Of a stretch of DNA of 64,000 nt, positions 3,141 to 16,353 are shown piece after piece. Position 1 is the stretch's first letter; the number at the start of each line of letters is the position of its first letter. The notes under the pieces are model-generated. The model was not told the origin of the DNA. It saw only the letters and a list, made by a program, of their open reading frames with translations, and did no database searches. The stretch spans positions 248,001-312,000 of the forward strand of contig NZ_VSMB01000002.1 in NCBI RefSeq assembly GCF_009805705.1. Direction: 5' to 3'. The DNA is from Ruania rhizosphaerae (lineage in GTDB: Bacteria > Actinomycetota > Actinomycetes > Actinomycetales > Beutenbergiaceae). The position numbers and the translations under genes were made by a program.

Positions 3141-4223
3141 GTGCGCATCGTGAGTGTGGTCGGGGCCAGGCCCCAGTTCGTCAAGCTCGCCCCCGTGGCT
3201 TCCGCGTGCCGGGCGGCCGGGGTGGAGCACGTGATCGTGCACACGGGGCAGCACTACGACGCGCTGCTCTCGGACGTGTTCTTCAGTGCGCTGCACATCC
3301 CGGAACCGGACGTGCAGCTGGGCATCGGCTCAGGTAGCCACGGGGGGCAGACCGGGGCGATGCTCGCGGCCCTGGAGCCGGTGCTGCGGGCGCAGGATCC
3401 GGACTGGGTGCTGGTGTACGGGGACACGAACTCGACGCTCGCCGCGGCGCTGGCGGCGGTGAAGCTGCACCTGCCGGTGGCGCACCTAGAGGCTGGGCTG
3501 CGCTCGTTCAACCGCCGCATGCCCGAGGAGCACAACCGGGTGCTGACCGACCATGCCGCCGATCTGCTGCTGGCGCCGACACAGGTGGCCGCCTCACATC
3601 TGGCGCGCGAGGGGTTGGCCGAGCGGACCGTGGTGGTCGGGGACGTGATGACGGATGTGGTGCATCAGGTGGCCGGGGCGGTCTCTGGTTCGGATGTGCT
3701 GGATCGTCTCGGGGTGAGCGCGGGCGAGTTCAGCGTGGCGACGCTACACCGGGCTGAGAACACCGACGACGCTGGGCGGTTGGCGGCGATCGTGGAGGGG
3801 CTGGCTGCCGTGGATCATCCCGTGCTGCTGCTGGCGCATCCGCGGTTGCGGGCGAAAGCTGACGAGCACGGGGTGGCGCTGAGATCTGGTGGTGTCCGGG
3901 TGCTCGACCCGCTCGGCTACCCGGATCTGGTGGCACTCGTCTCGCAGGCGCGCGGGGTGATCACCGACTCCGGTGGGCTGCAGAAGGAGGCCTTCGAGTT
4001 GCGGGTGCCGTGCACGACGGTGCGGACGGAGACCGAGTGGGTGGAAACGGTGGAGCTGGGGTGGAATGTGCTCGTCGGTCCCGGGGAGATTGCGACGGCC
4101 GCGACGCGGGCGCGGCCGGAGGAGACCGATGCAGCGCCGTATGGGGATGGGCATGCGGCTCAGAGGGTGGTGGGGGTGCTGGCAACGCCGATGCCAATCT
4201 GGCTTGACTTCCACGGGCAGTGA
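3141..4223 (+). CDS. wecB: UDP-N-acetylglucosamine 2-epimerase (non-hydrolysing)
   Basis: A 360-residue cytosolic epimerase interconverting UDP-GlcNAc-type and UDP-ManNAc-type sugars by anti-elimination/syn-addition of UDP. It starts at GTG with MRIVSVVGARPQFVKLAPV, the family signature. Further motifs are HTGQHYD (about 34), VYGDTNSTLA (about 92), HLEAGLRSFNRRMPEEHNR (about 114) and DSGGLQKEAF (about 275). The length is normal; the last dozen residues after VVGVLA look random and may be a replaced tail. In the diacetamido-mannuronate route it would be the WbpI step. Its 3' third plus downstream DNA is repeated in direct orientation at 14623-14960, flanking the RHS block. Confidence 0.93.
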   Translation: MRIVSVVGARPQFVKLAPVASACRAAGVEHVIVHTGQHYDALLSDVFFSALHIPEPDVQLGIGSGSHGGQTGAMLAALEPVLRAQDPDWVLVYGDTNSTLAAALAAVKLHLPVAHLEAGLRSFNRRMPEEHNRVLTDHAADLLLAPTQVAASHLAREGLAERTVVVGDVMTDVVHQVAGAVSGSDVLDRLGVSAGEFSVATLHRAENTDDAGRLAAIVEGLAAVDHPVLLLAHPRLRAKADEHGVALRSGGVRVLDPLGYPDLVALVSQARGVITDSGGLQKEAFELRVPCTTVRTETEWVETVELGWNVLVGPGEIATAATRARPEETDAAPYGDGHAAQRVVGVLATPMPIWLDFHGQ

Positions 4224-4321: not shown

Positions 4322-4442
4322 ACGGTGCTGACCTCGGTGGGTGAACCTCGACTGCATGTGCGAATCACACAATCCCCTGGTTCAAGTCAACCGTTCGCGG
4401 CGCAGATCCCATGCCTCGAACTTGCTGTCAGACAGCGAGCCG

Positions 4443-4970
4443 TCAACGCCTTCGACATTCCAGTTCTGGAGGGCGATATCCCTCGACCTCATCAGTCTCC
4501 CAATTCTCATCTACATACAGAGTCCACCCCGGATCTGGAAGCTCTTCAACGACTAGAGAACCCCATGCAGGACCCCAACCTTCCTCGGCTACGAACACAC
4601 GAAACGGAAGATCACCTTCAGTTATTTCATGCGCTCCGGCGCGGCGTTCGTACCCCGCTTCCTCGAGGTCAAATAGAGGCACCTCCCACCACCCCGAAAC
4701 CTCGGTGGCATCCATTGAGTACCGCACTATCCGGTCGGTTTGAAAGTTGTCGTCCCCCTCCGAATAGAAGGTTATCTCTTCCGGTCGAGTATCGGAGCAA
4801 CTTTCGTGCATGATCCAAGGGGAGCCGTCGACATCGACATAGATTCCAATGTTGCCAGTGTTGGGAAAGTCAGACCCGAAGGGAATTCGCTCACATCCGG
4901 AAATTGCGATCGCGACCAAGGAGATGGACGCGGTCGCCTTAAAGATCTGAGCGCAGTCAATAGCAATCAT
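4443..4970 (-). CDS. Small acidic lipoprotein, candidate immunity protein for the RHS toxin
   Basis: A 175-residue protein of no family I recognise. The ATG at 4970 is chosen because GGAGGG sits 8 nt upstream and it gives a clean lipoprotein signal: a hydrophobic stretch ending in the lipobox A-I-S-G-C with Cys26. The mature part is acidic and rich in Trp/Tyr/Glu (for example SGWWEVPLFDLEEAGY and DPGWTLYVDENWETDEVEGY), suggesting a compact beta-rich domain outside the membrane. It overlaps the RHS gene's stop by 14 bp (4957-4970), so it is co-translated directly after the toxin tip. The base composition is clearly less GC-rich than the flanks, like the toxin tip. The immunity role is inferred from position, size and localisation only. 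Confidence 0.6.
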   Translation of the reverse strand: MIAIDCAQIFKATASISLVAIAISGCERIPFGSDFPNTGNIGIYVDVDGSPWIMHESCSDTRPEEITFYSEGDDNFQTDRIVRYSMDATEVSGWWEVPLFDLEEAGYERRAGAHEITEGDLPFRVFVAEEGWGPAWGSLVVEELPDPGWTLYVDENWETDEVEGYRPPELECRRR

Positions 4971-7900
4971 GGTATCCGCCCTCCGCATAGTCGGCCAACC
5001 CTTCATAGATGCCGCAACCCGGATTTCCACGGGTAGCAGCCGCGATAAGAGAATCTACACCATAAAGGATCGCGAATCCTGGCCCATGGACGGCCCACTG
5101 GGTACTGTGTCGCGCCTCGTGGCGCGCAACCTGATCAGTCAGGGGTTCATTGTTCCGAATCCACACGACGTTTCCTATAGTCATCGCAGGATTGTTTGTT
5201 GGGATGGGGGCATTGTAGCAATAATGCTGCCCAAAGCGGGAATCAAATTCGCAGTCTGCGCCGCCAATCTCTGCCCACTCCAAGCCCATCCGAGTCGTTC
5301 CATTGTAGTGGTTCGCAATACCAGATAGTCGACTCATGTACGCAGTGTCTTGCATAAGGTCCCACCAAAGTTGCGGCACGCCGGAGACGATATCCCAGGT
5401 AGATATTTCAGGACCTCCGATCTGGCATGTCATTCCCGGGCACCCGCCTGCGTGGGTGAAGGCGCTGGCGATGGCAGGCGAGCTGCTGCTACCACCCGTG
5501 GAGGCAGAGCCTGCCCGGTTGCTGGAGCCAGCGCCGCTTGACTCCCCGGATGTAGTTGGAGTCGTACTAGGAGTTGATCCACCGCCCGAGCTTGTCCCCC
5601 CGGGCTTGGCCGGATACTTCTTGTCGGCACCCGGCTTGATCTTGTGGTTTGCTCCCTTTCCTGCCTTCGGTCCGGCCTCAAGGAAACCGTCGGAACTGTT
5701 GATTCGCGAGGAATTGTTTGTCCAGTCCGGAATCATCCTCCCACCGGTCGCAATGAGCCCTGTGGGGTCGGAGAGTGTTGTGGGGTTTGCGTTGGCGTAG
5801 GTGTAAGGGTTCCACTGGTGGGGGTTGGTGGTGTCGATGATGGGGTCGGGGCTGATGAACTGACCGATGGTGGGGTCGTAGTAGCGGGCTCCGATGTGGG
5901 TCAGGCCAGTGGTGTCGGTGGGCTTGTTGAGGAAGCCGTGGTCGTCGACCCAGACCGGTTGTGGTCCACGAGGGTTGCCGTAGGGGTCGAAGTAGCGGCG
6001 GGTGAGGTCGTTGGTGGTATTGGCGATCGTGATGGTCGCGGTGTGGTGGTGATCGGCGATGGTGGTGTCGAGGTCACCGTTGAATGCTGAAGAACTGGTG
6101 CGCGCGGCTACCTGTTGACCGTTGAAGGAGTAGTACCGGGTCGCGGTGATCGTGCCGGCGTCGAGTGCAAGTTCTTGCCCACCGGGCAGGTAGACGGTGG
6201 TCTCGCCGTCCTGGTGACGGACCAGGCGTTGCCCTTCGGGGGTGTAGATGTAGTCGTCGGTGCTGGTGCCCTGGGTCAGGGTTTCCAGGCGCCCCTCCGG
6301 GTCCCAGGTCAGGGTTTGCTGGGCCTGGCTGGGGAGATCACGGGTGAGAGTGTTTCCGGCGTCGTCGTAGGTGAACTCACTGGTCGTGGTCGTGTTTGGG
6401 CCGGTGGTGGTGGTTTCGGTGAGGGTGTGGGCTTGGTTGGTGCCCGCAGTGGGGCGGTCGTATGTGGTGGTGATGTCGCCGCTGGCGCGGTGGTCGGTGA
6501 GGCTGGTGCGGTTGCCGGCGTCGTCGTGGGTGTAGGTGTGCCAGTAGGGGGCCGGTCCGCCGAGCCCGGTGGCAGTGCGCGTGGCGGAACAGTCGCCGTT
6601 ATCGGGAGTCCAGGCGTGGTGGAGGCGGGCCTGGTTATAGGTGAAGCACTGGGTATCGCCGGCGGCGTCGTCGTCGATGCCGAGGAGGTTTCCTGCGTCG
6701 TCGTAGGTGTAGGTGATGTCCAGGTCGTAGGAGGTGGCGCCCTCGCGTTGCAACCAGCTCTGGTCGGGCCGGCGGGTGCCGTACTGGTAGGAGTAGTTGA
6801 TGAGGTTGGCGTGGGAAGCTCCGACGTCCATGATCAGCGGTTCGCCGTAGACGGAGTAGTCGGTGCCGGAGACGTAGACGCCCCATCCGAATCCGCCTGC
6901 AGTCCACTCGGGCATGCCGCGGTTGTCGTAGTAGGTCGTGACCGTCTCTGAGCGCAACCCACCGGCGGCGGGATAGGTCGTGGTCTTGGGTTGCCCGTCG
7001 AGGGTGTAGGTGTAGCTGGTGGTGTAGTCCCCGGCGAGGGCACCTTCGGCGGTGGGGAGGGTGAGGGTGTGGCCGAGGGGACGGTAGCCGTCGTCGTAAC
7101 CGGTGATGGTGGTGGTGTAGTCGGCGCCATCGTGATGGCGAGTGGATGAGGTGAGTTGTCCGGCGTCGAGGGTGTCCCAGTCCCAGGTCGAGCGCAGCGT
7201 TCCGGTGGCGTTGTTCTCGCGTAGCTCGGTCCGCCGTCCGAGGTGGTCGTACGTGGTGTGCAGGGTTTCCCCGCGGGCGTCTGTGGTCGTGAGGCGTTGG
7301 TCGGCAGCGTCGTAGGTATGGGTGCTGGTACCAGTGTCAGGGTCTGTCTGGCTGGTCAGGCGTCCACGTAGGTCGTAGTCCCAGGTCCAGGTGTTGCCGT
7401 CGGCGTCGGTCATGGCGGTGCGTTGCCCGGCCGGGTCGTAGTCGTAGGTGACCGCGTCATAGGAGCCGGTCGGGGTGGCGCCTTCGTAGGTGCGCAGCTC
7501 GATGAGCTGACCGAAGACATCGGAGATCTCGGTGGTGGGAACACCGCCGTCTGGGGGTGTGGTGGTGGCCCGGTCCCCGCCGTAGGCGATGCTGGTGCGC
7601 CATTGTTCGTCTTCACCGATCTCGGTAATCGCCGCGGTCTGACGGCCGGCGCCGTCGTAGGCGTAGCTGGTCCGCAGCGGCACCGCTGCGACAGGCTCGA
7701 TCACAGTGGTAGCCGGGCTACCGGACGTATACCAGGGGGCGTTGGCGTAGGAGACCAGACCGCGGGAGTCATATACGGTCCCTGCCACGATGCGCCCAGG
7801 GGTGTCCCGGTCGGCTGTGGGCGACTGCGTCTGCCGCTCACGCAGCAACCCGTCGTAGAGGGTGATGGTATCGAGGTAGGTGCCGTCGTGGATGAGCCGG

Positions 7901-10900
7901 GACGTGGTGACCGTGTTCGTTCCCGTGGCCGAGACCGAGTACTCGTACTCCACGTGGGGGGTATCGGTGCCTTGGACCCGGCCGGGTCGCCAGACGTCGG
8001 TCAGGCGACCGATCGCGTCGTAGGTGCCGGTGGTGACCTTCCCATTCGGGTCCACGACCTGCGTCTGGGAGCCCCAAGCGGGGTCGAGCGCGGTGGTGGT
8101 GGTGTGCGCGGTCAACGGCCCGGCGCCGTCGGGATCGGGGCTGGTGACCGTCATCTGCGTCGCCAGACCACCGGAGGTGGGGGTGTAGCTGGTGGTGGTG
8201 GTCCTCCCGAGCGCGTCGGTGACCGCGGTCAGGCGCCCCGTCGCGTCATGGGCAGCCTCTGTGACCGTCTCATAGGTCGGGGTCCCGCTGGAGTACCCAG
8301 TCAGGCGCTCCTCGACTGTGACCAGCCCCTGCGTAGGCGCGGTGCCGTAGCTGCCGCCGTCATACAGGGTGCGGGTGTCACTGAGGACATCCGCTGGTCG
8401 GGACGGGGTCTGCGCGCAGGCCACCGAGACGGTCTCCTGCCGCTTGTGGGTGGCCACGATGTGGGCGCTGGTGTTGCGCACGTACTCGGTGCGGGTGCAC
8501 CGCTCGTCGCCGCTGATAGCGAGATCGCCGCGGTCATCGACCTTGATGGGCATGCCGTAGGCATCGTAGGTAGTGATGGTGCGGCTGGTGCGTTCACCAC
8601 CGGGCAGTGCGGGCGCATCCACCCAGGCATCGACAGTCCCGATAGCGGCGTACCGGGCGGTGCGACCATCGGCCCCGGTCGCGGTGGGGGCGGACTGCCA
8701 GGGCGTGTTGGTGGTGGCCGTGATCGCCGCCGCCCCGTCATAGCTGGTCTCGGTGCGCACGATCCCGGCGTAGTGCGGGTGATCGGTGACTCCGTCTACG
8801 CTGACGGTTCGGGTTCCCCCGGATGGGGAGGACCGGTCGCCGTGCATGCCGCGGAAGAACTCATACACGGTACGTATCGGGGTGGTTTGTGACGGGTCAC
8901 CGACGGAGACCTCAACCTCGGCGTATCCGCGGAAGTCCCGCCACGTGCGGTACTCCGGATCGACCAGGTCGTTGTCGGTGTAGTGCCACGCGGCACCACC
9001 TTGATAGTCGTAGTTGGTCACGATCGCGTGCGAAGTGCCATCGCCCGGGTGATCGACCGTGCTGGAGACCAGGTACTTGTGGAAGTACTCCTCGATCGGG
9101 CCGATCGAACCTTCCGGGTCCCAGGTCACCGGGAAGCAGCGGCGTGTGTTCGTGTGCGCATTGGAGGGCAGGTCACCGGCGGTGCAGTCGATCGGCGTGT
9201 AGTTGACCGATGTGGTCGCTCCGGTCTCGGTGGTGATCGAGGAGATCCGGTACCGGTTCATCGGCGGGCCGTTATCACCCAACTCGTCAACTCGGTTGGG
9301 CATCTGCACCCCGGCGAAGGTGACTGGCGGCATCTGCACCTGCGGTGAGTCCGCGCGACCGGTGTGCTGGACCTGTTCCAACCACAGATGCCTCGAGGTG
9401 GCATCGCCCGGGTCAGGGAAAGAGTGCGTCAGCTCCCACTGGTCAACGCTGCGGTAGGAACCGCCCTCGAGCACGCTCGTCGTGACCTCGACGAGGCGCT
9501 TGCGTGTGAAGAACACCGGCGAGAGCACATCTGGGCAGGAGGTGGTCGAGGTGCAGATCAAGTCATACGGCACATCGGGCCAGTGCTCAGCGTTCGCTGA
9601 CGTCAATTGCGAGGGCGCGCAGGTGATCGACCCCGACGGGAGGCACCGCTCTGCAACATCGAAACTGACCCGCGCTGGAGCGGTGGAGGTCTCCTGCCCT
9701 TCACGCTGCGCGTAGTCAATCCTGGACAAGTAGCCGCCACGGTCATAGGCGACGCTTTCGCTATCCAAGTTGAGCCCATACCTGTTGGTCTCGCGCTGAT
9801 AAAAATACGTCATCGAGTTGCCGGTGGTATCGACCACGTAGTCGAGGTTCCACCGCCACACCTGCTCACACCAAGAGTCAGCGAACACCGAGTCGTAGCA
9901 CGGCTCTCCCGGGTGGTTGCCGAACACCGGCACCGTCCACGCAGAACGCAACGGCGTGGTATCGGTGGCTGAACGTTGGTCGCGCCCGAAGAAGTACTGT
10001 GTGCCATCGGTCGCCGTGACTCGCCAGTACTCCCCGTCCTGCCCATCGTTCCAAGCACCAGTCAAGCGCTCGATTCGCATACCGTTGTCATGCCGGGGCT
10101 GCCATTGACCGGAGGTCTCGTCCAGGATCAGCTCATAGGCTTGACCGTCCAGCTGCAAGGTGGCGTTCTGCGTCCCCCAGCACAAATCACCCGTGGTGAG
10201 GGAAGCGTTGTTCGCCGACCCATCGGTATCGTCCACGCACGGCACGTAGCTGCGTTCGATGAACCCCGAGGACATCCCCCAGCCCTCACCGATCCACGAG
10301 GCCTGGTTGTTGGTATCAGCGACCCGCCCGTCGACCGAACCCGACGAATACCCCAGCCCCAGCTGCGGTGCCGGATAGGACCCGGCCGGCGGAGTCCGGA
10401 AGGGGTAGGACCAAGTGAAGTTGCCCGTCCTGGCTGACACGTCCCACGTCGCCGACGGAGCCAACGGAGATGCTGACCAGTCACCACCCGGCCCGCTCTC
10501 AGCGGCCATCAGAGCGAACGTGCCCGCCTCGGCCGAATCGAAGGTGGCCGAGACGACCTGCTGCTCCTGATCGTTGACCGAAGACACTGGCGCTGTGCCT
10601 GTATCCCTGGCCCCGGTTGCCGGTCCCGGTCCTCGGGAGGCGCACTCGCCGTCGGCGTCCAGATCACAGCCGGGCACCGGCACCAACTGCAAACGGCTAG
10701 CCCAGTCTCCACCGAAGGCGTCCGCGTACGCGGAGTAGTCGACACTTACCTGGACCGGCACGTCGAGCTCGGCGGCTGACTCAACCTCAAACAGCACCCC
10801 GTCGACACCCGCCGCGGCAGCGGCACTCGCGTCTGCGACGGTGACCTGCACTTGCGGCGCACCCGGTCCACGCGAACCGGCAGCCGAGTCAACCTGCACC

Positions 10901-11232
10901 GTCACTGGACCCGCCTCGACCCGCCCAGCACCGAGCCTGGCGCGTTCGTGGGCCTGCTCAGGCAACTCCACACGGCGTGCGCGTTCAGCCGGGGGCCAGT
11001 CTGGTACCGGCTGCTCAACTGCAACAGGTTCGGCCGCGATCAGGTCCTCACGCTCGCGATCGGGCCACAGACTCTGCCCGTGCTCCCGGCGTTCCTGCGC
11101 ACTCCACGACGCCCGCTCCTCATCCGAGGGAACATCCGGCTGGGCTCCAGCGGGCGTGACATTCCCGACGACCAGCAGCGCCCCCACCAGCACGCCAACA
11201 CCCAGAATCCGACCTGAACGCGGAATAGACAT
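4957..11232 (-). CDS. Secreted RHS/YD-repeat polymorphic toxin with zincin-like (HExxHxxQ) C-terminal domain
   Basis: A 2,091-residue protein of the actinobacterial WapA/RHS kind. The signal peptide is residues 1-30 (cleavage after TPAGA). An N-terminal region with an FTWSYPFRTPPAG segment typical of secreted RHS proteins leads into many YD repeats (YDAIGRLTD, YDLRGRLTS, YDAADQRL and so on, about residues 950-1700). The RHS core end GARYYDPTIGQFISPDPI is followed by the junction DPTGL at residue 1826. The 265-residue tail begins with a Ser/Gly/Thr linker, then a Cys-containing domain with HEARHSTQW at 2038-2046 and EGLAD at 2077, the pattern of an HExxHxxQ metallopeptidase with a distal Glu ligand. 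ATG at 11232 has AGGGGGCAGGG just upstream. The tail DNA is less GC-rich than the core. Known for the family: the RHS core encloses and delivers a variable tip toxin. Inferred: this tip is a zinc peptidase. Confidence 0.85.
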   Translation of the reverse strand: MSIPRSGRILGVGVLVGALLVVGNVTPAGAQPDVPSDEERASWSAQERREHGQSLWPDREREDLIAAEPVAVEQPVPDWPPAERARRVELPEQAHERARLGAGRVEAGPVTVQVDSAAGSRGPGAPQVQVTVADASAAAAAGVDGVLFEVESAAELDVPVQVSVDYSAYADAFGGDWASRLQLVPVPGCDLDADGECASRGPGPATGARDTGTAPVSSVNDQEQQVVSATFDSAEAGTFALMAAESGPGGDWSASPLAPSATWDVSARTGNFTWSYPFRTPPAGSYPAPQLGLGYSSGSVDGRVADTNNQASWIGEGWGMSSGFIERSYVPCVDDTDGSANNASLTTGDLCWGTQNATLQLDGQAYELILDETSGQWQPRHDNGMRIERLTGAWNDGQDGEYWRVTATDGTQYFFGRDQRSATDTTPLRSAWTVPVFGNHPGEPCYDSVFADSWCEQVWRWNLDYVVDTTGNSMTYFYQRETNRYGLNLDSESVAYDRGGYLSRIDYAQREGQETSTAPARVSFDVAERCLPSGSITCAPSQLTSANAEHWPDVPYDLICTSTTSCPDVLSPVFFTRKRLVEVTTSVLEGGSYRSVDQWELTHSFPDPGDATSRHLWLEQVQHTGRADSPQVQMPPVTFAGVQMPNRVDELGDNGPPMNRYRISSITTETGATTSVNYTPIDCTAGDLPSNAHTNTRRCFPVTWDPEGSIGPIEEYFHKYLVSSTVDHPGDGTSHAIVTNYDYQGGAAWHYTDNDLVDPEYRTWRDFRGYAEVEVSVGDPSQTTPIRTVYEFFRGMHGDRSSPSGGTRTVSVDGVTDHPHYAGIVRTETSYDGAAAITATTNTPWQSAPTATGADGRTARYAAIGTVDAWVDAPALPGGERTSRTITTYDAYGMPIKVDDRGDLAISGDERCTRTEYVRNTSAHIVATHKRQETVSVACAQTPSRPADVLSDTRTLYDGGSYGTAPTQGLVTVEERLTGYSSGTPTYETVTEAAHDATGRLTAVTDALGRTTTTSYTPTSGGLATQMTVTSPDPDGAGPLTAHTTTTALDPAWGSQTQVVDPNGKVTTGTYDAIGRLTDVWRPGRVQGTDTPHVEYEYSVSATGTNTVTTSRLIHDGTYLDTITLYDGLLRERQTQSPTADRDTPGRIVAGTVYDSRGLVSYANAPWYTSGSPATTVIEPVAAVPLRTSYAYDGAGRQTAAITEIGEDEQWRTSIAYGGDRATTTPPDGGVPTTEISDVFGQLIELRTYEGATPTGSYDAVTYDYDPAGQRTAMTDADGNTWTWDYDLRGRLTSQTDPDTGTSTHTYDAADQRLTTTDARGETLHTTYDHLGRRTELRENNATGTLRSTWDWDTLDAGQLTSSTRHHDGADYTTTITGYDDGYRPLGHTLTLPTAEGALAGDYTTSYTYTLDGQPKTTTYPAAGGLRSETVTTYYDNRGMPEWTAGGFGWGVYVSGTDYSVYGEPLIMDVGASHANLINYSYQYGTRRPDQSWLQREGATSYDLDITYTYDDAGNLLGIDDDAAGDTQCFTYNQARLHHAWTPDNGDCSATRTATGLGGPAPYWHTYTHDDAGNRTSLTDHRASGDITTTYDRPTAGTNQAHTLTETTTTGPNTTTTSEFTYDDAGNTLTRDLPSQAQQTLTWDPEGRLETLTQGTSTDDYIYTPEGQRLVRHQDGETTVYLPGGQELALDAGTITATRYYSFNGQQVAARTSSSAFNGDLDTTIADHHHTATITIANTTNDLTRRYFDPYGNPRGPQPVWVDDHGFLNKPTDTTGLTHIGARYYDPTIGQFISPDPIIDTTNPHQWNPYTYANANPTTLSDPTGLIATGGRMIPDWTNNSSRINSSDGFLEAGPKAGKGANHKIKPGADKKYPAKPGGTSSGGGSTPSTTPTTSGESSGAGSSNRAGSASTGGSSSSPAIASAFTHAGGCPGMTCQIGGPEISTWDIVSGVPQLWWDLMQDTAYMSRLSGIANHYNGTTRMGLEWAEIGGADCEFDSRFGQHYCYNAPIPTNNPAMTIGNVVWIRNNEPLTDQVARHEARHSTQWAVHGPGFAILYGVDSLIAAATRGNPGCGIYEGLADYAEGGYHDCY

Positions 11233-11526
11233 CCCTGCCCCCTACCTAGTCGTGTGCTACCCCCTTCACACCGACCACCCCAGTCCCTCAGAAGGGCGAG
11301 ATACACCCGCCACCCCCTTGGCACCTGCATCAGCGGCGGGCCGCTCGGCATCAAGTGCGCCACAAGTTATCGCAAAGAACCCCTTGCGCGGAACCCCCAA
11401 TTGCCAACAGAATCTCCACCACGACACAACCGGAGACGAGCTACGCCAGGCTCTACCATCCCGGCACGGCGACCCCACCACAGGGCCGTCACAGGGGGCT
11501 CGCCACAATCCACAAGGGGGAACCAC
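11233..11526. promoter_or_regulatory. Divergent intergenic region between the RHS gene and the LamG protein gene
   Basis: This 294-bp gap separates two head-to-head secreted-protein genes and must contain both promoters. Each start codon has a strong purine-rich ribosome site (AGGGGGCAGGG before 11232 on the minus strand, AAGGGGGAACCAC before 11527 on the plus strand). I see no clear sigma-type boxes or operator. Confidence 0.4.
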
Positions 11527-14415
11527 GTGCACCGCTCAGCACGCTCAGCCACTGCACTCACCGCTGCCACGGCCCTGGTCCTGACCAGCCTGACGCTCGC
11601 CGCACCAGCCAGCGCTGACGACGCACAGGACCCCACCTGTGAAGCCACCAACAACGTCAGCGACGCGACGGCACGGGCATCATCGTGTGGCGAGGAGATC
11701 GAGGTCCTCACCGAACGCACCGCGTACGCGACCACCTACGCCACCCCGCAAGGAACCTTCCGCACCGAACACTCCAACTCGCCCGTACGCACGAATCTGC
11801 GCGGCGACTGGGAACCGATCGACCCCACCCTCATCGACACCGCTGACGGCATCACCGTTCAAGCGCCGCTGGTCGAAATGGTCTTCTCCGACGGAACACC
11901 AGGCCAGCCCCTGGCATCGATCGCCTCAGCCGGTCACACGCTCGAAATGGACGCACCACTTCCCCTGACCCGGCCCCGCATCGATGGACGAACCATCACC
12001 TACCCCGACGTCCTCGATGATGTCGACCTGATCCTCTCAGTCCATCCCGACGGCACTGGATTCGCCGAAGTTCTACGCGTGCACACGCCCGAAGCAGCGC
12101 GCAGCCCGCAACTGCGGACCCTCGACTTTCCCCTCACCACCACCCCAGGCCTGACCACCACCCCCACCAGCGAGGACGGCAGCGACGGCGAAGACAGCGC
12201 CCCGATCGGTGCCGGGTTCACCGCCACCAACGATGCAGGGGAGGAGATCTTCACCTCCCCCGCCCCGATCATGTGGGACTCCGGATCCACCACCACGCTC
12301 GTGCCCGCCACCAGCGACACCGGCGAGAGATCTGGCGACGAGCCAGCCCGGGCCACCGCCGTGCAGGACCCCACCACCCCCGGCGAAGGTGATGCGGTCG
12401 CTCCCATGGCCAGCGAGCTCACACCGGAGGCGGTGACGATCACCCCGGACCAGGACATGGTCAACAATCCTGACACCATCTGGCCGATCCACATCGACCC
12501 CTCGATCTCCGCCACCGGCCCACAACGAACCGTCGTCATGTCCGCCTGGCCCACCCACACCGGCGAATACGGCTTCACCGGCGACGCCGGCGTCGGCTAC
12601 TGCTCCACCGCCTACGCGGCCTCATGCACCTCCAGCAGCAAGCACCGCATCCTCTACCGCTTTCGCGGCATGAGTACCGTCGGCAGCCTCGACGCCGAGG
12701 ACATTATCGACGCCGAATTCCGTGTCTATGGCACGCATTCCTGGTCCTGCACCGCCACCAATGTCGAACTGTGGCGAACAGGCCCACTGTCTTCCTCGAC
12801 GAGTTGGAGCAATCAACCCGGATGGTGGGAACGTCAACAGACCATGGCCCTCGCTCACAAATCCTCCTGCGGAAACCAACGCTGGATCGAATGGGACGCC
12901 ACGGAAGCAGCCGAGTACACCGCCGCGAACAACTACAGCACGGTCAACTTCGGCCTGCGCGCCTCCAACGAGACCTCCATGCCCAGCTCCTGGCACCGCT
13001 ACCGCTACGACGCCAAGTTCTCGGTCGAGTACTCACGCCCACCCACCGCCGCTACCGCCATGTCCACCAGCCCTGCCACCACCTGCTCCACGACCAACCC
13101 GGCACCAATCCGCGACACCACCCCCACGTTGCGCTGGCGAGTGGCCGACCCCGACGGCGGCAACGTACGCGGCAACATGGACCTCTACCGCATCAGCGAC
13201 AACACGCGGGTTTGGAACCCGAGCCTGCCCACCCAATCCAGCGGCAGCCAGTTCACCGTCACTGTCCCCTCCCACCGCAACCTCGCCAACGGCCACACCT
13301 ACGAATGGCGAGCCGGAGGCATCGACGTCACCACCGGACGCTACGGCCCCACCACCCGATGCCGATTCACCATCGACACCACCAACCCCGCCGCACCAGA
13401 GGTGGCACCACACACGGCCACCATGCCCGCCACCTACCCCGAAGACACCGTGTCCGGAGCAGTTGGACTCGAAGGCCGTTTCCTCGTCAACAACGCCGGC
13501 AACGACATCGACTACTTCCGCTATTCCTTCGACTCCGACGCACTTAACCAAACCGTTGACGCCTGGTCCGACACCGCAGCCAGCATCTACTACACGCCCA
13601 CCACACCCGGCTCCCACAGACTCCTCGTCCAAGCCGTCGACCACGCCGGCAACACCGGCCCCGTGACCACCTACCGATTCAGCGTCCAATTCCCCGGAAC
13701 CGCCGCCCACTGGAAACTTGACGACGCCACCGGCACCACCGGCACTGACGAGATCGGCCCCAACGACCTCACCATCTCCACCTCCACCACCTGGACAACC
13801 GGCCCCTTCGCCGACCTCGCCGGAGACCCCAACGACACCGCCCTCGGATTCGACGCCACCAGCGACACCGCGCACACCGCGGGGCCAGTCCTCGACACCA
13901 GCCAGAGCTACACCGTCATGGCCTACGTCAATCCGAACTCCCTTGGAAGCAGCCCGCAAACAGCAGTTAGCCAAGACGGGCAAGACGTCAGCGCATTCCA
14001 ACTCGGCTACATCCCACCCGCACACTGCGACGGCGTCAACGACGGGTGCTGGCACATGCAAATCCGCACGATCGACGACGGCGGCAGCACGTACCTCACC
14101 CGCCCAACAACCCCCATACCCTCAACCGCGGAAGGCAACTGGATACACCTGACCGGCATCGTTGACACCACCAACGACACCGTCAGCCTCTACACCTGCG
14201 ACCCCACCGGCACAGCAGAACCCATCCTCGCCGCCACCGAGACCATCACCACCCCCCTCACCTGGACCGCCGGCGGCCCAACCCAACTCGGCCGCGGCAT
14301 GGCAGCAAGCAACCACTCCAACCACTGGAACGGCACCATCGACGAAGTCCGCCTCTACGACAACGTCATCCCCATCACCACCATCCGCGACGCATGCCGC
14401 GGCATGATCTCCTGA
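11527..14415 (+). CDS. Secreted DNRLRE/LamG-domain protein, partner of the RHS gene
   Basis: A 962-residue exported protein. An open frame extends upstream to 11254, but the GTG at 11527 is chosen because AAGGGGGAACCAC precedes it and it starts a classic signal peptide cleaved after PASA (residue 30). Then come an N-terminal domain typical of actinobacterial RHS proteins (ITYPDVLDDVDLILSVHPDG, about 157), a DNRLRE-like beta domain (about 341-500, with ILYRFRG and a Cys pair), two Ig/Fn3-like domains (about 506-618 and 621-720) and a LamG/concanavalin-like domain (about 725-958, from AAHWKLDDATGTTGTDEIG). In many actinobacteria these modules lie in the same polypeptide as the RHS repeats; here they are a separate, divergent gene. 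Likely roles are surface adhesion or assembly with the RHS protein (inference). Confidence 0.8.
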   Translation: MHRSARSATALTAATALVLTSLTLAAPASADDAQDPTCEATNNVSDATARASSCGEEIEVLTERTAYATTYATPQGTFRTEHSNSPVRTNLRGDWEPIDPTLIDTADGITVQAPLVEMVFSDGTPGQPLASIASAGHTLEMDAPLPLTRPRIDGRTITYPDVLDDVDLILSVHPDGTGFAEVLRVHTPEAARSPQLRTLDFPLTTTPGLTTTPTSEDGSDGEDSAPIGAGFTATNDAGEEIFTSPAPIMWDSGSTTTLVPATSDTGERSGDEPARATAVQDPTTPGEGDAVAPMASELTPEAVTITPDQDMVNNPDTIWPIHIDPSISATGPQRTVVMSAWPTHTGEYGFTGDAGVGYCSTAYAASCTSSSKHRILYRFRGMSTVGSLDAEDIIDAEFRVYGTHSWSCTATNVELWRTGPLSSSTSWSNQPGWWERQQTMALAHKSSCGNQRWIEWDATEAAEYTAANNYSTVNFGLRASNETSMPSSWHRYRYDAKFSVEYSRPPTAATAMSTSPATTCSTTNPAPIRDTTPTLRWRVADPDGGNVRGNMDLYRISDNTRVWNPSLPTQSSGSQFTVTVPSHRNLANGHTYEWRAGGIDVTTGRYGPTTRCRFTIDTTNPAAPEVAPHTATMPATYPEDTVSGAVGLEGRFLVNNAGNDIDYFRYSFDSDALNQTVDAWSDTAASIYYTPTTPGSHRLLVQAVDHAGNTGPVTTYRFSVQFPGTAAHWKLDDATGTTGTDEIGPNDLTISTSTTWTTGPFADLAGDPNDTALGFDATSDTAHTAGPVLDTSQSYTVMAYVNPNSLGSSPQTAVSQDGQDVSAFQLGYIPPAHCDGVNDGCWHMQIRTIDDGGSTYLTRPTTPIPSTAEGNWIHLTGIVDTTNDTVSLYTCDPTGTAEPILAATETITTPLTWTAGGPTQLGRGMAASNHSNHWNGTIDEVRLYDNVIPITTIRDACRGMIS

Positions 14416-14582: not shown

Positions 14583-14622
14583 CGCTCGCCGCACCAGGGC
14601 GGCCATCTCTGAGATGGGGCCA
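14583..14622 (-). pseudogene. Fragment of a GT4 glycosyltransferase gene
   Basis: About 40 bp resembling codons near the end of the glycosyltransferase at 16378-17502. The shared run GCACCAGGGCGGCCATCTC encodes EMAALVR on the minus strand, and the following GGGGCCCA-like DNA also matches. It abuts the wecB fragment at 14623, so two gene ends from this locus have been joined here. Confidence 0.55.
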
Positions 14623-14835
14623 CAGAGAGAGGTCTTCGAGCTGCGGGTGCCGTGCACCACGGTGCGGACGGAGACCGAATGGGTGAAGACAGTGGAGCCG
14701 GGGTGGAATGTGCTGGTCGGTCCCGGGGAGATCGCGGCGGCCGCGACGCGGGCGCCGCCGGAGGAATCCAACGCGGCGCCGTATGGGGATGGGCGTGCAG
14801 CTCAGCGGGTAGTGGAGGCGCTGGCAACGAAGTGA
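14623..14835 (+). pseudogene. wecB: wecB 3'-end fragment
   Basis: An open stretch of 71 codons to the TGA, corresponding to the last fifth of the epimerase at 3141-4223 (QREVFELRVPCTTVRTETEW ... AAQRVVEALATK). It has no start codon of its own and lacks the catalytic two thirds. It differs from the intact gene at many positions, so it is either an old duplication or the end of a different wecB allele. Its C-terminus (EALATK, then stop) looks more typical than that of the intact copy. Confidence 0.8.
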
Positions 14836-15255: not shown

Positions 15256-15780
15256 TCAATGGAAGATGTCCTCGAGGGTGGTAGCGGTGAGGATGCGGTC
15301 GGTCCAGGTGTCGAGCTCGTCGGTGGGGGCGTGCTGGATGCGGTCCTGGTGGTGTTCGGGTAGGGGGCCGAACTTCTGGGTGAGCAGGCGCGCGAGTGTC
15401 TCGGCTTGCGATTGGCGTCGGCCTTGTTGCACGCCTTGTTGGAGGCCTTCGCCCCGGCCTCGTTGGATGTACTGCTCGGCGGTGCTGGTCATGTAGGCCT
15501 CCCGTGCGGTGGGTCCGAGGCGGGTGAACAACGCTTCGTAGTCTTCTGGTGGTGCGTCCCCGACCAGGAGGACGTATCTCATGATAAGTCCGAACAGGCT
15601 CTCCTCGCCGGAATCATGGGGATCGCTGCGGTTGATGACGGCTGCCAGGTCGTCCGCGAACACGGCCAGGTCCACGTCCGGGTGAAGGCTGCTGGTGATG
15701 GTCTTGAGCACCACCAGCGTCAGCCGGGCCTCCGCAGTCAACGGCTGCGCCCGCAACTCGTTGATGTCAATCGCGGCGAG
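15256..15780 (-). repeat. Inverted repeat, left copy (Rpn gene C-terminal half)
   Basis: About 520 bp nearly identical, in opposite orientation, to 21101-21634. It encodes INELRAQPLTAEARLTLVVL through LARLLTQKFGPLPEHHQDRI. The main difference is a short Gln-rich stretch (LQQGVQQGRRQSQ here, LQQGRAEVQER in the other copy). Confidence 0.9.
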
Positions 15781-16113
15781 GTCTTCGAGGAGGAACTCCA
15801 ACCGGGGCAGATACGGGGCCATCGCTGCGGCAGTGCCTGGTTCGAGGTCGAGGATGTCGGTCAGGCTGGTCGGCGCCGACCACGGCCGGTCAGGGTGGGC
15901 CGGGTTGTGATGAACCACCACCGGGAGAACTGCCGGTAGCCGGGTCGCATCGGGGTGCTGGTCAAGGTGACGACGCCAGATCCGGACCGTGTACTCCATC
16001 AACCGGAACGCCATGAGCGGGTCGGGGCTCGACTGGTGTGCGATCAGGGGCCCGTCGGCGCGAGGGTCTTCCGCGAGTGGCCGCTCAGGGTGGTCAGCGT
16101 GATCATTGGGCAT
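15256..16113 (-). pseudogene. Rpn-family (YhgA-like) recombination-promoting nuclease, internally deleted
   Basis: A 285-codon frame of the Rpn/PF04754 family, PD-(D/E)XK nucleases that promote recA-independent recombination. The core LIAHQSSPDPLMAFRLMEY (about residue 24) and TRLPAVLPVVVHHNP (about 55) is clear. The family's first 60-80 residues, with the first catalytic Asp, are missing between MPNDHADHP and the core, and the usual EHQSSPD motif reads AHQSSPD, losing a catalytic Glu. A longer frame to 16233 exists, but the ATG at 16113 gives the family-like MPN start. It is probably inactive. A second, more truncated copy lies inverted at 21101. Confidence 0.75.
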
Positions 16114-16353
16114 CCACACGCCGGAGGAACCAGCACCCTTCAGCCGCTGAACGAGTACTGGGGGGGTGCATCGACATATCCCCGCGCGACGCGTACGTGC
16201 GCGAGAGCCGGGCCGGGCTGCTGATACGGGCATCCGCGCGGGTCTACGCGGTTGGCCACGGTCACCACTTGACCACCCGCAACCGCCTAACCCGAGCCCG
16301 GGTCGAAAGATCGGCCCCTGGAGGCGGGTTCGGTGCCCGGCGGGAATGCGCAG

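What the first reader, a model, noticed from the sequence alone, without database searches (positions are those of the whole stretch)
4443..11232. RHS toxin with a zincin-like HExxHxxQ tip and an overlapping lipoprotein as candidate immunity
The RHS core ends at DPTGL (residue 1826) and is followed by a Ser/Gly linker and a ~170-residue domain carrying HEARHSTQW and a downstream EGLAD. The next gene overlaps by 14 bp, encodes a lipidated acidic protein and shares the tip's lower GC. A peptidase toxin neutralised by an outward-facing lipoprotein would act on the envelope rather than on DNA or RNA, the usual RHS target. Seen: motifs, overlap, lipobox, composition. Family knowledge: RHS tips are swapped toxin modules next to immunity genes. 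Inference: peptidase activity and immunity.
Basis: partly seen in the sequence, partly recalled or inferred. Interest (0 to 1): 0.85.

Follow-up and report, generated by a model that had tools for sequence, protein, structure and literature searches.

The report
Secreted metalloprotease-like toxin with lipoprotein immunity
An actinobacterium carries a large secreted toxin whose end looks like a zinc-dependent protease, and the next gene makes a surface lipoprotein that probably shields the producer from it; the same pairing turns up in several relatives, so it is probably a recurring weapon-and-shield kit.

Summary
In detail: a 2091-residue RHS protein with a Sec-like signal ends at DPTGL(1826), a linker and a lower-GC tip with HEARHSTQW(2038) and E2077, overlapped 14 bp by a 175-residue lipobox protein. 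The tip belongs to a large actinobacterial HExxHxxQ...E domain family without a Pfam entry, distantly related to PF13699 eCIS_core (the 'PVC-metallopeptidase'). Most homologues are small proteins; one is in this genome. Six other RHS genes and one contig-edge tip carry the domain. Six of the eight tips (window included) have a lipoprotein gene next door, against 5 of 56 other RHS genes (p 1.5e-4; 4 of 6, p 2.9e-3, without window and near-copies). RHS tips carry Cys pairs absent from the small homologues and lack their hydrophobic helix, fitting action outside the cytoplasm. A 68%-identical RHS core elsewhere bears a different tip and neighbour, so tips are swapped. Best reading: an exported zincin-like toxin with lipoprotein immunity, a Gram-positive counterpart of the T6SS Tpe-Tpi pairs. 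Unproven: zinc, proteolysis, target, immunity. The window's own lipoprotein has no detectable homologue, and no PDB fold match was significant.

The parts
4957..11232 (-). RHS polymorphic toxin gene, 2091 aa
   Evidence: ORF; RHS_repeat, SpvB, Rhs_assc_core
11143..11232 (-). Sec-type signal peptide (about residues 1-30, ...TPAGA-Q)
   Evidence: read from the sequence; no predictor was run
9688..10431 (-). SpvB domain, residues 268-515
   Evidence: Pfam PF03534 E 3.6e-9
5755..5988 (-). RHS-associated core end, residues 1749-1826 (DPTGL)
   Evidence: NCBIfam TIGR03696 E 1.8e-17
5473..5754 (-). linker, residues 1827-1920, Ser/Gly-rich towards its end
   Evidence: sequence
4960..5472 (-). toxin tip, residues 1921-2091
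   Evidence: AF2 mean pLDDT 82.7 for 171 residues, first 24 below 50
4960..5313 (-). conserved zincin-like domain, residues 1974-2091
   Evidence: aligns with small homologues
5095..5121 (-). HEARHSTQW, putative Zn-binding helix, residues 2038-2046
   Evidence: invariant HExxHxxQ; helix 113-129 of the model
4990..5004 (-). EGLAD, putative third Zn ligand E2077
   Evidence: invariant E; helix 155-159 of the model
4979..4984 (-). GGAGGG, ribosome-binding-site-like, before ATG 4970
   Evidence: sequence
4443..4970 (-). candidate immunity lipoprotein, 175 aa, overlaps the RHS stop by 14 bp
4893..4970 (-). type II signal peptide and lipobox, Cys26
   Evidence: regexes; no predictor was run
11254..14415 (+). 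divergent secreted DNRLRE/LamG protein beside the RHS gene (true start probably further in)
3975..4187 (.). left direct repeat (wecB 3' end)
14617..14829 (.). right direct repeat, 87% identical to the left one

Best explanation
A Sec-exported RHS shell carries a C-terminal zincin-like metallopeptidase toxin of the wider HExxHxxQ...E (PVC-metallopeptidase / eCIS_core-like) superfamily. Outside the cell the disulfide-stabilised tip acts on a protein at the surface or membrane face of competing bacteria, and the producer is protected by the lipoprotein encoded immediately downstream, which sits on the outer face of its own membrane and binds the tip. Shown: gene structure, tip family, recurrence of the tip-lipoprotein pairing, tip swapping on a near-identical core, Cys layouts, predicted fold. 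Inferred: export, disulfides, zinc binding, proteolysis, extracytoplasmic target, binding by the lipoprotein, antibacterial role.
For: Conserved ligands. Family link to eCIS_core. Six further RHS genes and one contig-edge tip with this domain. Lipoprotein downstream of 6 of 8 such tips against 5 of 56 other RHS genes, Fisher p 1.5e-4; without the window and with near-copies L240/L241 counted once, 4 of 6, p 2.9e-3. Lipoprotein profile in 130 genomes: 10 copies in 9 genomes; five are the query sequences or a near-copy, all tip-linked by construction; of the other five, three lie beside decayed tips. Cys layout (lipid Cys, Cys 24-32 later, Cys at the C-terminal end) in 7 of 7 lipoproteins beside zincin tips, the window's included (several are homologous to each other, so not independent), and 0 of 5 control ones. 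One Cys pair in 9 of 9 rows of A5 and a second, by eye, in 7 of 9; in 46 small homologues these four columns hold C in 1, 0, 0 and 0. Stretch of mean hydropathy 1.6 or more between the ligands in 38 of 46 small homologues, 0 of 9 in A5. G011: 68% identical core with a different tip and a different overlapping neighbour. Precedents in passages: VgrG2b/Tpe-Tpi (PMC6899460), TslA-TilA (PMC10730906), PVC-metallopeptidase as an RHS C-terminal toxin (PMC3482391).
Against: The window lipoprotein has no significant similarity to the other lipoproteins (pairwise z at most 1.9; hhalign of the mature part 15.3 against shuffles 11.8, s.d. 2.2, 4 of 60 shuffles as high) and no other relative was found. L251 has a zincin-type tip without a lipoprotein; L243 has a protein with one hydrophobic segment instead. 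L320, a different HExxHxxQ RHS tip, has a downstream ORF without a lipobox. Two of five independent lipoprotein copies stand without a tip, and one of them, L373, lacks the C-terminal Cys. The PDB fold search gave no match at E up to 0.001, and the tip reaches no Pfam or NCBIfam cut-off. Small homologues also contain Cys elsewhere (median 2). No activity data.
Confidence: 0.67

Rival explanations
1. The tip is a zincin-like domain used for processing (releasing part of the RHS protein or cutting its partner), not a toxin; the lipoprotein is an anchor or chaperone.
For: PMC3482391 passages: most PVC-metallopeptidases are thought to be releasing peptidases.
Against: The same passages take C-terminal copies after RHS repeats as likely toxins; here it is the last domain with nothing behind it to release. 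A near-identical core carries another tip. Decayed tips left beside lipoprotein genes fit toxin-immunity turnover better.
Confidence: 0.13
2. The tip is a toxin, but the lipoprotein is not its immunity: it is an accessory or unrelated gene, and immunity lies elsewhere or is not needed (target in distant organisms).
For: The window lipoprotein has no detectable homologue; L251 has no lipoprotein.
Against: Recurrence 6 of 8 against 5 of 56; Cys layout 7 of 7 against 0 of 5; overlap with the RHS stop.
Confidence: 0.14
3. The tip is a catalytically dead or binding-only module (adhesin or decoy).
For: No activity shown; no significant PDB fold match.
Against: All putative ligands invariant in 35 of 35 and 9 of 9 rows.
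Confidence: 0.06

Closest known systems
VgrG2b C-ter / PA0261 and Tpe1-Tpi1 (T6SS metallopeptidase effector-immunity pairs; PMC6899460, passages seen)
   Same: C-terminal HExxH metallopeptidase with a third Glu ligand, homologues often annotated DUF4157, small immunity ORF directly downstream, toxic when sent to the periplasm and not in the cytoplasm, immunity proteins exposed outside the cytoplasm and predicted lipoproteins in Enterobacteriaceae.
   Different: T6SS delivery in Gram-negatives; our tip profile finds no such chain in the PDB sequences and it is not among the 50 fold matches shown; ours is an RHS protein with a Sec-like signal in an actinobacterium, with Cys pairs in tip and lipoprotein.
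PVC-metallopeptidase / eCIS_core (PF13699, DUF4157) domains (PMC3482391 and PMC11297309, passages seen)
   Same: HExxHxxQ-E signature; occasional C-terminal toxin position after RHS repeats (Pedosphaera, PMC3482391).
   Different: The tip itself does not reach Pfam detection; here a distinct, unnamed actinobacterial branch; the usual copy is N-terminal on eCIS cargo.
TslA-TilA (T7SS lipase toxin with lipoprotein immunity; PMC10730906, passages seen)
   Same: Gram-positive exported toxin neutralised by an extracellular lipoprotein.
   Different: Lipase, T7SS, different gene order and domain arrangement.
Imm65 with Tox-JAB-1 (PMC3482391, passage)
   Same: Lipoprotein immunity in polymorphic toxins; described there as the only apparent lipoprotein in that collection.
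   Different: Bacteroidetes, paired with JAB-1 tips.

Membership tests
RHS polymorphic toxin system | RHS repeats and Rhs-associated core followed by a variable C-terminal tip | tested here: met
   different tip on a 68% identical core
RHS polymorphic toxin system | small gene directly downstream of the tip | tested here: met
   14 bp overlap
RHS polymorphic toxin system | downstream gene confers immunity | not testable with these tools
   only comparative support
PVC-metallopeptidase / eCIS_core (PF13699) | HExxHxxQ ... E signature | tested here: met
PVC-metallopeptidase / eCIS_core (PF13699) | profile match above the Pfam cut-off by the tip itself | tested here: not met
   no PF13699 match at E up to 1; relatives: 11 of 47 at E up to 0.01
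PVC-metallopeptidase / eCIS_core (PF13699) | homology at profile level | tested here: met
   hhalign probability 89.8% (A2), 88.1% (A4), 75.0% (A5); covers strand and HExxHxxQ, not the third ligand (18 of 20 loci used)
PVC-metallopeptidase / eCIS_core (PF13699) | association with an eCIS locus | not tested
   the window was not scanned for eCIS genes; an eCIS_core gene lies on another contig
Tpe-Tpi (VgrG2b C-ter/PA0261) | exported or lipidated immunity protein next to the tip | tested here: met
   lipobox by pattern
Tpe-Tpi (VgrG2b C-ter/PA0261) | detectable sequence or fold match to VgrG2b C-ter | tested here: not met
   profile against PDB sequences: two unrelated chains only; not among the 50 of 75 PDB fold matches shown
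Tpe-Tpi (VgrG2b C-ter/PA0261) | delivery by a T6SS | not tested
   the RHS protein starts with a Sec-like signal; no T6SS search was run
Tox-MPTase1-5 | Pfam match | tested here: not met
   tip: none at E up to 1
zincin fold | HExxH on a helix behind a beta-sheet and the third ligand on a following helix | tested here: inconclusive
   element order fits, but no PDB match at E up to 0.001; BFVD: one match at 7e-5, unnamed, and a DUF4157 protein at rank 46, E 2.0

The most novel reading that the evidence does not exclude
A resident, widespread, membrane-associated actinobacterial zincin (single copy in this genome, family present in about a third of sampled order and class genomes) has been turned into an extracellular weapon at least twice: RHS toxins captured it independently, lost its hydrophobic helix, gained disulfides, and both times it travels with an exported Cys-bridged lipoprotein that blocks it. 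Toxin and resident enzyme may share an envelope substrate.
Probability: 0.3. Interest if true: 0.8.

Novelty: new variant of a known kind. Interest (0 to 1): 0.62.

Why it matters
It defines a testable toxin-immunity family in Gram-positive bacteria whose probable target lies outside the cytoplasm, and it gives a first functional lead for a large unnamed zincin-like family present in roughly a third of the actinobacterial genomes sampled by profile. Lipoprotein immunity was exceptional in the 2012 survey of polymorphic toxins (PMC3482391, passage). Two separate recruitments of such a domain by RHS proteins, each beside exported lipoproteins, would make an envelope target of Gram-positive RHS toxins directly testable.

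Tried and rejected
A direct scan of genome contigs with the tip alone found no relative. Plasmid tblastn with the tip and with the lipoprotein: no match. PDB sequence searches with the tip, the tip profile and the lipoprotein profile gave nothing usable. PHROGs: nothing usable. Sub-threshold family matches were set aside: DUF6444 0.084 in the linker, NlpE 0.088 for the lipoprotein. Homology of the window lipoprotein to the Streptosporangiaceae lipoproteins was tested twice and not shown (hhalign with the signal peptide left in gave 22.6, E 0.008, not counted because the signal alone can do that); I claim only a shared Cys layout and position. The single-sequence model of the lipoprotein is useless (pLDDT 36). 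Co-folding was not available. The hydrophobic segment of the L243 neighbour is only a hydropathy count. My first lipoprotein rule (longest downstream frame) missed L239; with any frame allowed it is found, and the control count stays 5 of 56 because one search flagged no control in another frame. The 60 control genes were taken from the list roughly in order of E-value among frames of 2,040 residues or more, leaving out three known zincin-tip genes, several at contig edges and genome G663; 3 of the 60 were cut by contig ends and L320 was set apart as a zincin-like tip, leaving 56. Two of 20 eCIS_core loci were dropped for lack of a central motif. MAFFT misaligned L244 in A8, so A9 left it and L241 out.

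I lowered the main confidence from 0.70 to 0.67 for the first point and raised the rivals by 0.01 each.

Paper searches listed no title on an actinobacterial RHS zincin tip with a lipoprotein; listings were capped (20 of 22, 12 of 65 and 15 of 40) and only listings and passages were seen, so this is not proof of absence.
Full report
What is there. The RHS gene 4957-11232(-) encodes 2091 residues with a Sec-like N-terminus (read by eye), SpvB and RHS repeats and an RHS-associated core at 1749-1826. After DPTGL comes a linker, Ser/Gly-rich towards its end, and a tip with HEARHSTQW at 2038 and EGLAD at 2077. GC falls from 66.0% in the rest of the gene to 57.5% in linker plus tip and 53.8% in the next gene. 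That gene, 4443-4970(-), overlaps the RHS stop by 14 bp, has a GGAGG 9 nt before its ATG, and encodes a 175-residue acidic protein with a lipobox at Cys26.

What the tip is. It reaches no Pfam or NCBIfam cut-off. A tip search of the 24 genomes of the family found, in 12 of them and including this genome, a small protein with the same domain, 34-38% identical in the alignment. The tip alone matches in 52 of 394 class genomes; a profile finds the domain in 94 of 297 genomes of the order and 88 of 296 of the class. The best 80 named loci all lie in stop-to-stop frames of at most 462 residues, so are taken as stand-alone proteins. H2038, E2039, H2042, Q2045 and E2077 are invariant in 35 of 35, 47 of 47 and 9 of 9 rows of three overlapping alignments (the 47-row set was gathered partly by motif patterns). 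Eleven of 47 members match PF13699 eCIS_core at E up to 0.01, and profile-profile comparison with 18 eCIS_core sequences gives 89.8% probability for A2, 88.1% for A4 and 75.0% for A5, over the strand and HExxHxxQ but not the third ligand. The AlphaFold2 model has mean pLDDT 82.7, with HExxH on helix 113-129 after four strands and E on helix 155-159. Foldseek against the PDB gave nothing with E at or below 0.001 (best 0.045; further down, at E 2 to 5, known zincins such as PPEP-1 and LTA4 hydrolase). The viral library gave one match at 7e-5, unnamed, and a DUF4157 protein at rank 46 with E 2.0, rmsd 2.3 over 68 columns. So a zincin-like fold is likely but not demonstrated.

Other RHS genes with this tip. 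The class search and a search of 110 genomes of the family of G428 gave six RHS-size frames besides the window: L239, L240, L241, L242 and L251, L252. Three of the six carry an Rhs_assc_core match (L239, L240, L242); the RHS core of the other three was read by eye. One more tip lies at a contig edge, its upstream part missing (L243), and one is broken (L244). Family f35 is taken as Streptosporangiaceae because small homologues of G428 and G494 are identical to those of named Microbispora and Planomonospora records. Downstream genes: lipoprotein for the window, L239, L240, L241, L242 and L252; a protein with one hydrophobic segment for L243; a phosphoesterase-like ORF, by eye, for L251. L244 also has a lipoprotein but is left out of the count because the tip is broken.

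Control. Sixty RHS genes of the same family were fetched without regard to tip, known zincin tips left out. Three were cut; one (L320) has another HExxHxxQ tip and a downstream ORF without a lipobox. Of the other 56, five have a downstream lipoprotein. Six of 8 against 5 of 56 gives Fisher p 1.5e-4. Without the window, whose lipoprotein raised the question, and with the near-copies L240/L241 counted once, it is 4 of 6, p 2.9e-3.

The lipoproteins. Those of L239, L242 and L252 are plainly homologous (z 39-45); L240 links to L242 and L252 (z about 5) and to L244 (z 8.3), while other cross pairs are weaker (L239-L240 2.4, L239-L244 1.5, L242-L244 -0.2). The window lipoprotein is not significantly similar to any (z at most 1.9). 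It shares length (175 against 164-176) and a layout of exactly two further Cys, one 24-32 residues after the lipid Cys and one at the C-terminal end, as in 7 of 7 lipoproteins beside zincin tips and 0 of 5 control ones. This layout was noticed after the fact, and several of the seven are relatives of each other. A profile of four of these lipoproteins found 10 copies in 9 of 130 Streptosporangiaceae genomes. Five are the queries or a near-copy, tip-linked by construction. Of the other five, three lie beside remnants of zincin tips (L369, profile E 1.4e-4; L372, 0.0066; L371, by eye only) and two have none (L370, L373). L373 also lacks the C-terminal Cys. The window lipoprotein itself has no relative in 24 family or 394 class genomes.

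Where it acts. RHS tips and three secreted-looking relatives carry a Cys pair (window C1994/C2005) in 9 of 9 rows and, by eye, a second (window C2073/C2090) in 7 of 9. In small homologues the first pair's columns hold C in 1 of 46 and 0 of 46, the second pair's in 0 of 46 and 0 of 45; the small proteins have a median of 2 Cys elsewhere, the tip 6 in all. In 38 of 46 small proteins a stretch between the ligands is hydrophobic enough for a membrane helix; in 0 of 9 rows of A5. This fits a membrane-linked resident enzyme and an exported, disulfide-bonded toxin form. That the small proteins lack signal peptides was judged by eye.

Origin. A tree of 40 domain sequences puts the RHS tips in two places: the window with L240 and L241 beside the small proteins (96/78, not starred; the branch holding both groups 99/96), and L239, L242, L243, L251, L252 elsewhere (100/99). 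Two changes are the least that starred branches force. Tip swapping is direct: G011 has a 68% identical RHS core, a different tip and a different overlapping neighbour. None of the three same-genus genomes in that search has a core relative. The window's RHS/LamG pair lies between 213-bp direct repeats of a wecB 3' end, 87% identical, as expected of an acquired island.

Against known systems. The 2012 survey of polymorphic toxins describes PVC-metallopeptidases with an HExxHxxQ-E signature, sometimes as C-terminal toxins behind RHS repeats, and calls Imm65 the only apparent lipoprotein in its collection of immunity proteins (PMC3482391, passages). VgrG2b C-ter is a gluzincin, with homologues often annotated DUF4157, toxic in the periplasm and not in the cytoplasm, with immunity proteins that are predicted lipoproteins in Enterobacteriaceae (PMC6899460, passages). 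TslA is neutralised by the lipoprotein TilA in a Gram-positive (PMC10730906, passages). The function of DUF4157 in eCIS cargo is called elusive, and for one effector toxicity did not depend on its metalloprotease motif (PMC11297309, passages), a caution for our reading. The window's pair probably works like these; it is not filed as a Tpe-Tpi or Pfam eCIS_core member because the direct matches failed.

Verdict. Exported zincin-like toxin with lipoprotein immunity, 0.67. Novel in combination and families, not in principle: a new variant of a known kind.

Noticed in passing
window 3975-4187 and 14617-14829: 213-bp direct repeats (87%) of a wecB 3' end bracket the RHS gene and its divergent DNRLRE/LamG neighbour; looks like an island boundary.
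   Followed up: partly
G000:C41:104934-105317 (L002): Resident single-copy small protein with the same HExxHxxQ...E domain, no Pfam match above cut-off; the domain occurs in 94 of 297 order and 88 of 296 class genomes.
   Followed up: partly
L246 (G000:C11) 4378-6516 and 6600-8582: eCIS_core protein next to an AAA ATPase with a WHD domain in the same genome: possible eCIS locus.
   Followed up: no
L320 (G671:C139): Different HExxHxxQ RHS tip (sub-threshold eCIS_core 0.0015 and Tox-MPTase2 0.0031) with a downstream ORF without a lipobox.
   Followed up: no
L329 and L353: Two similar Cys-bearing RHS tips, both followed by lipoproteins, with no Pfam match above cut-off: another candidate lipoprotein-immunity class.
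   Followed up: no
L322, L343 and L340: RHS tips with DUF6973 (L322, L343) and Ntox44 (L340), each followed by a lipoprotein.
   Followed up: no
G663: Genome with 27 Rhs_assc_core matches, many in short frames in a few clusters: looks like arrays of orphan tips.
   Followed up: no
window 15256-16233(-): YhgA-like transposase (PF04754) with DUF4351 beside the right end of the island.
   Followed up: no
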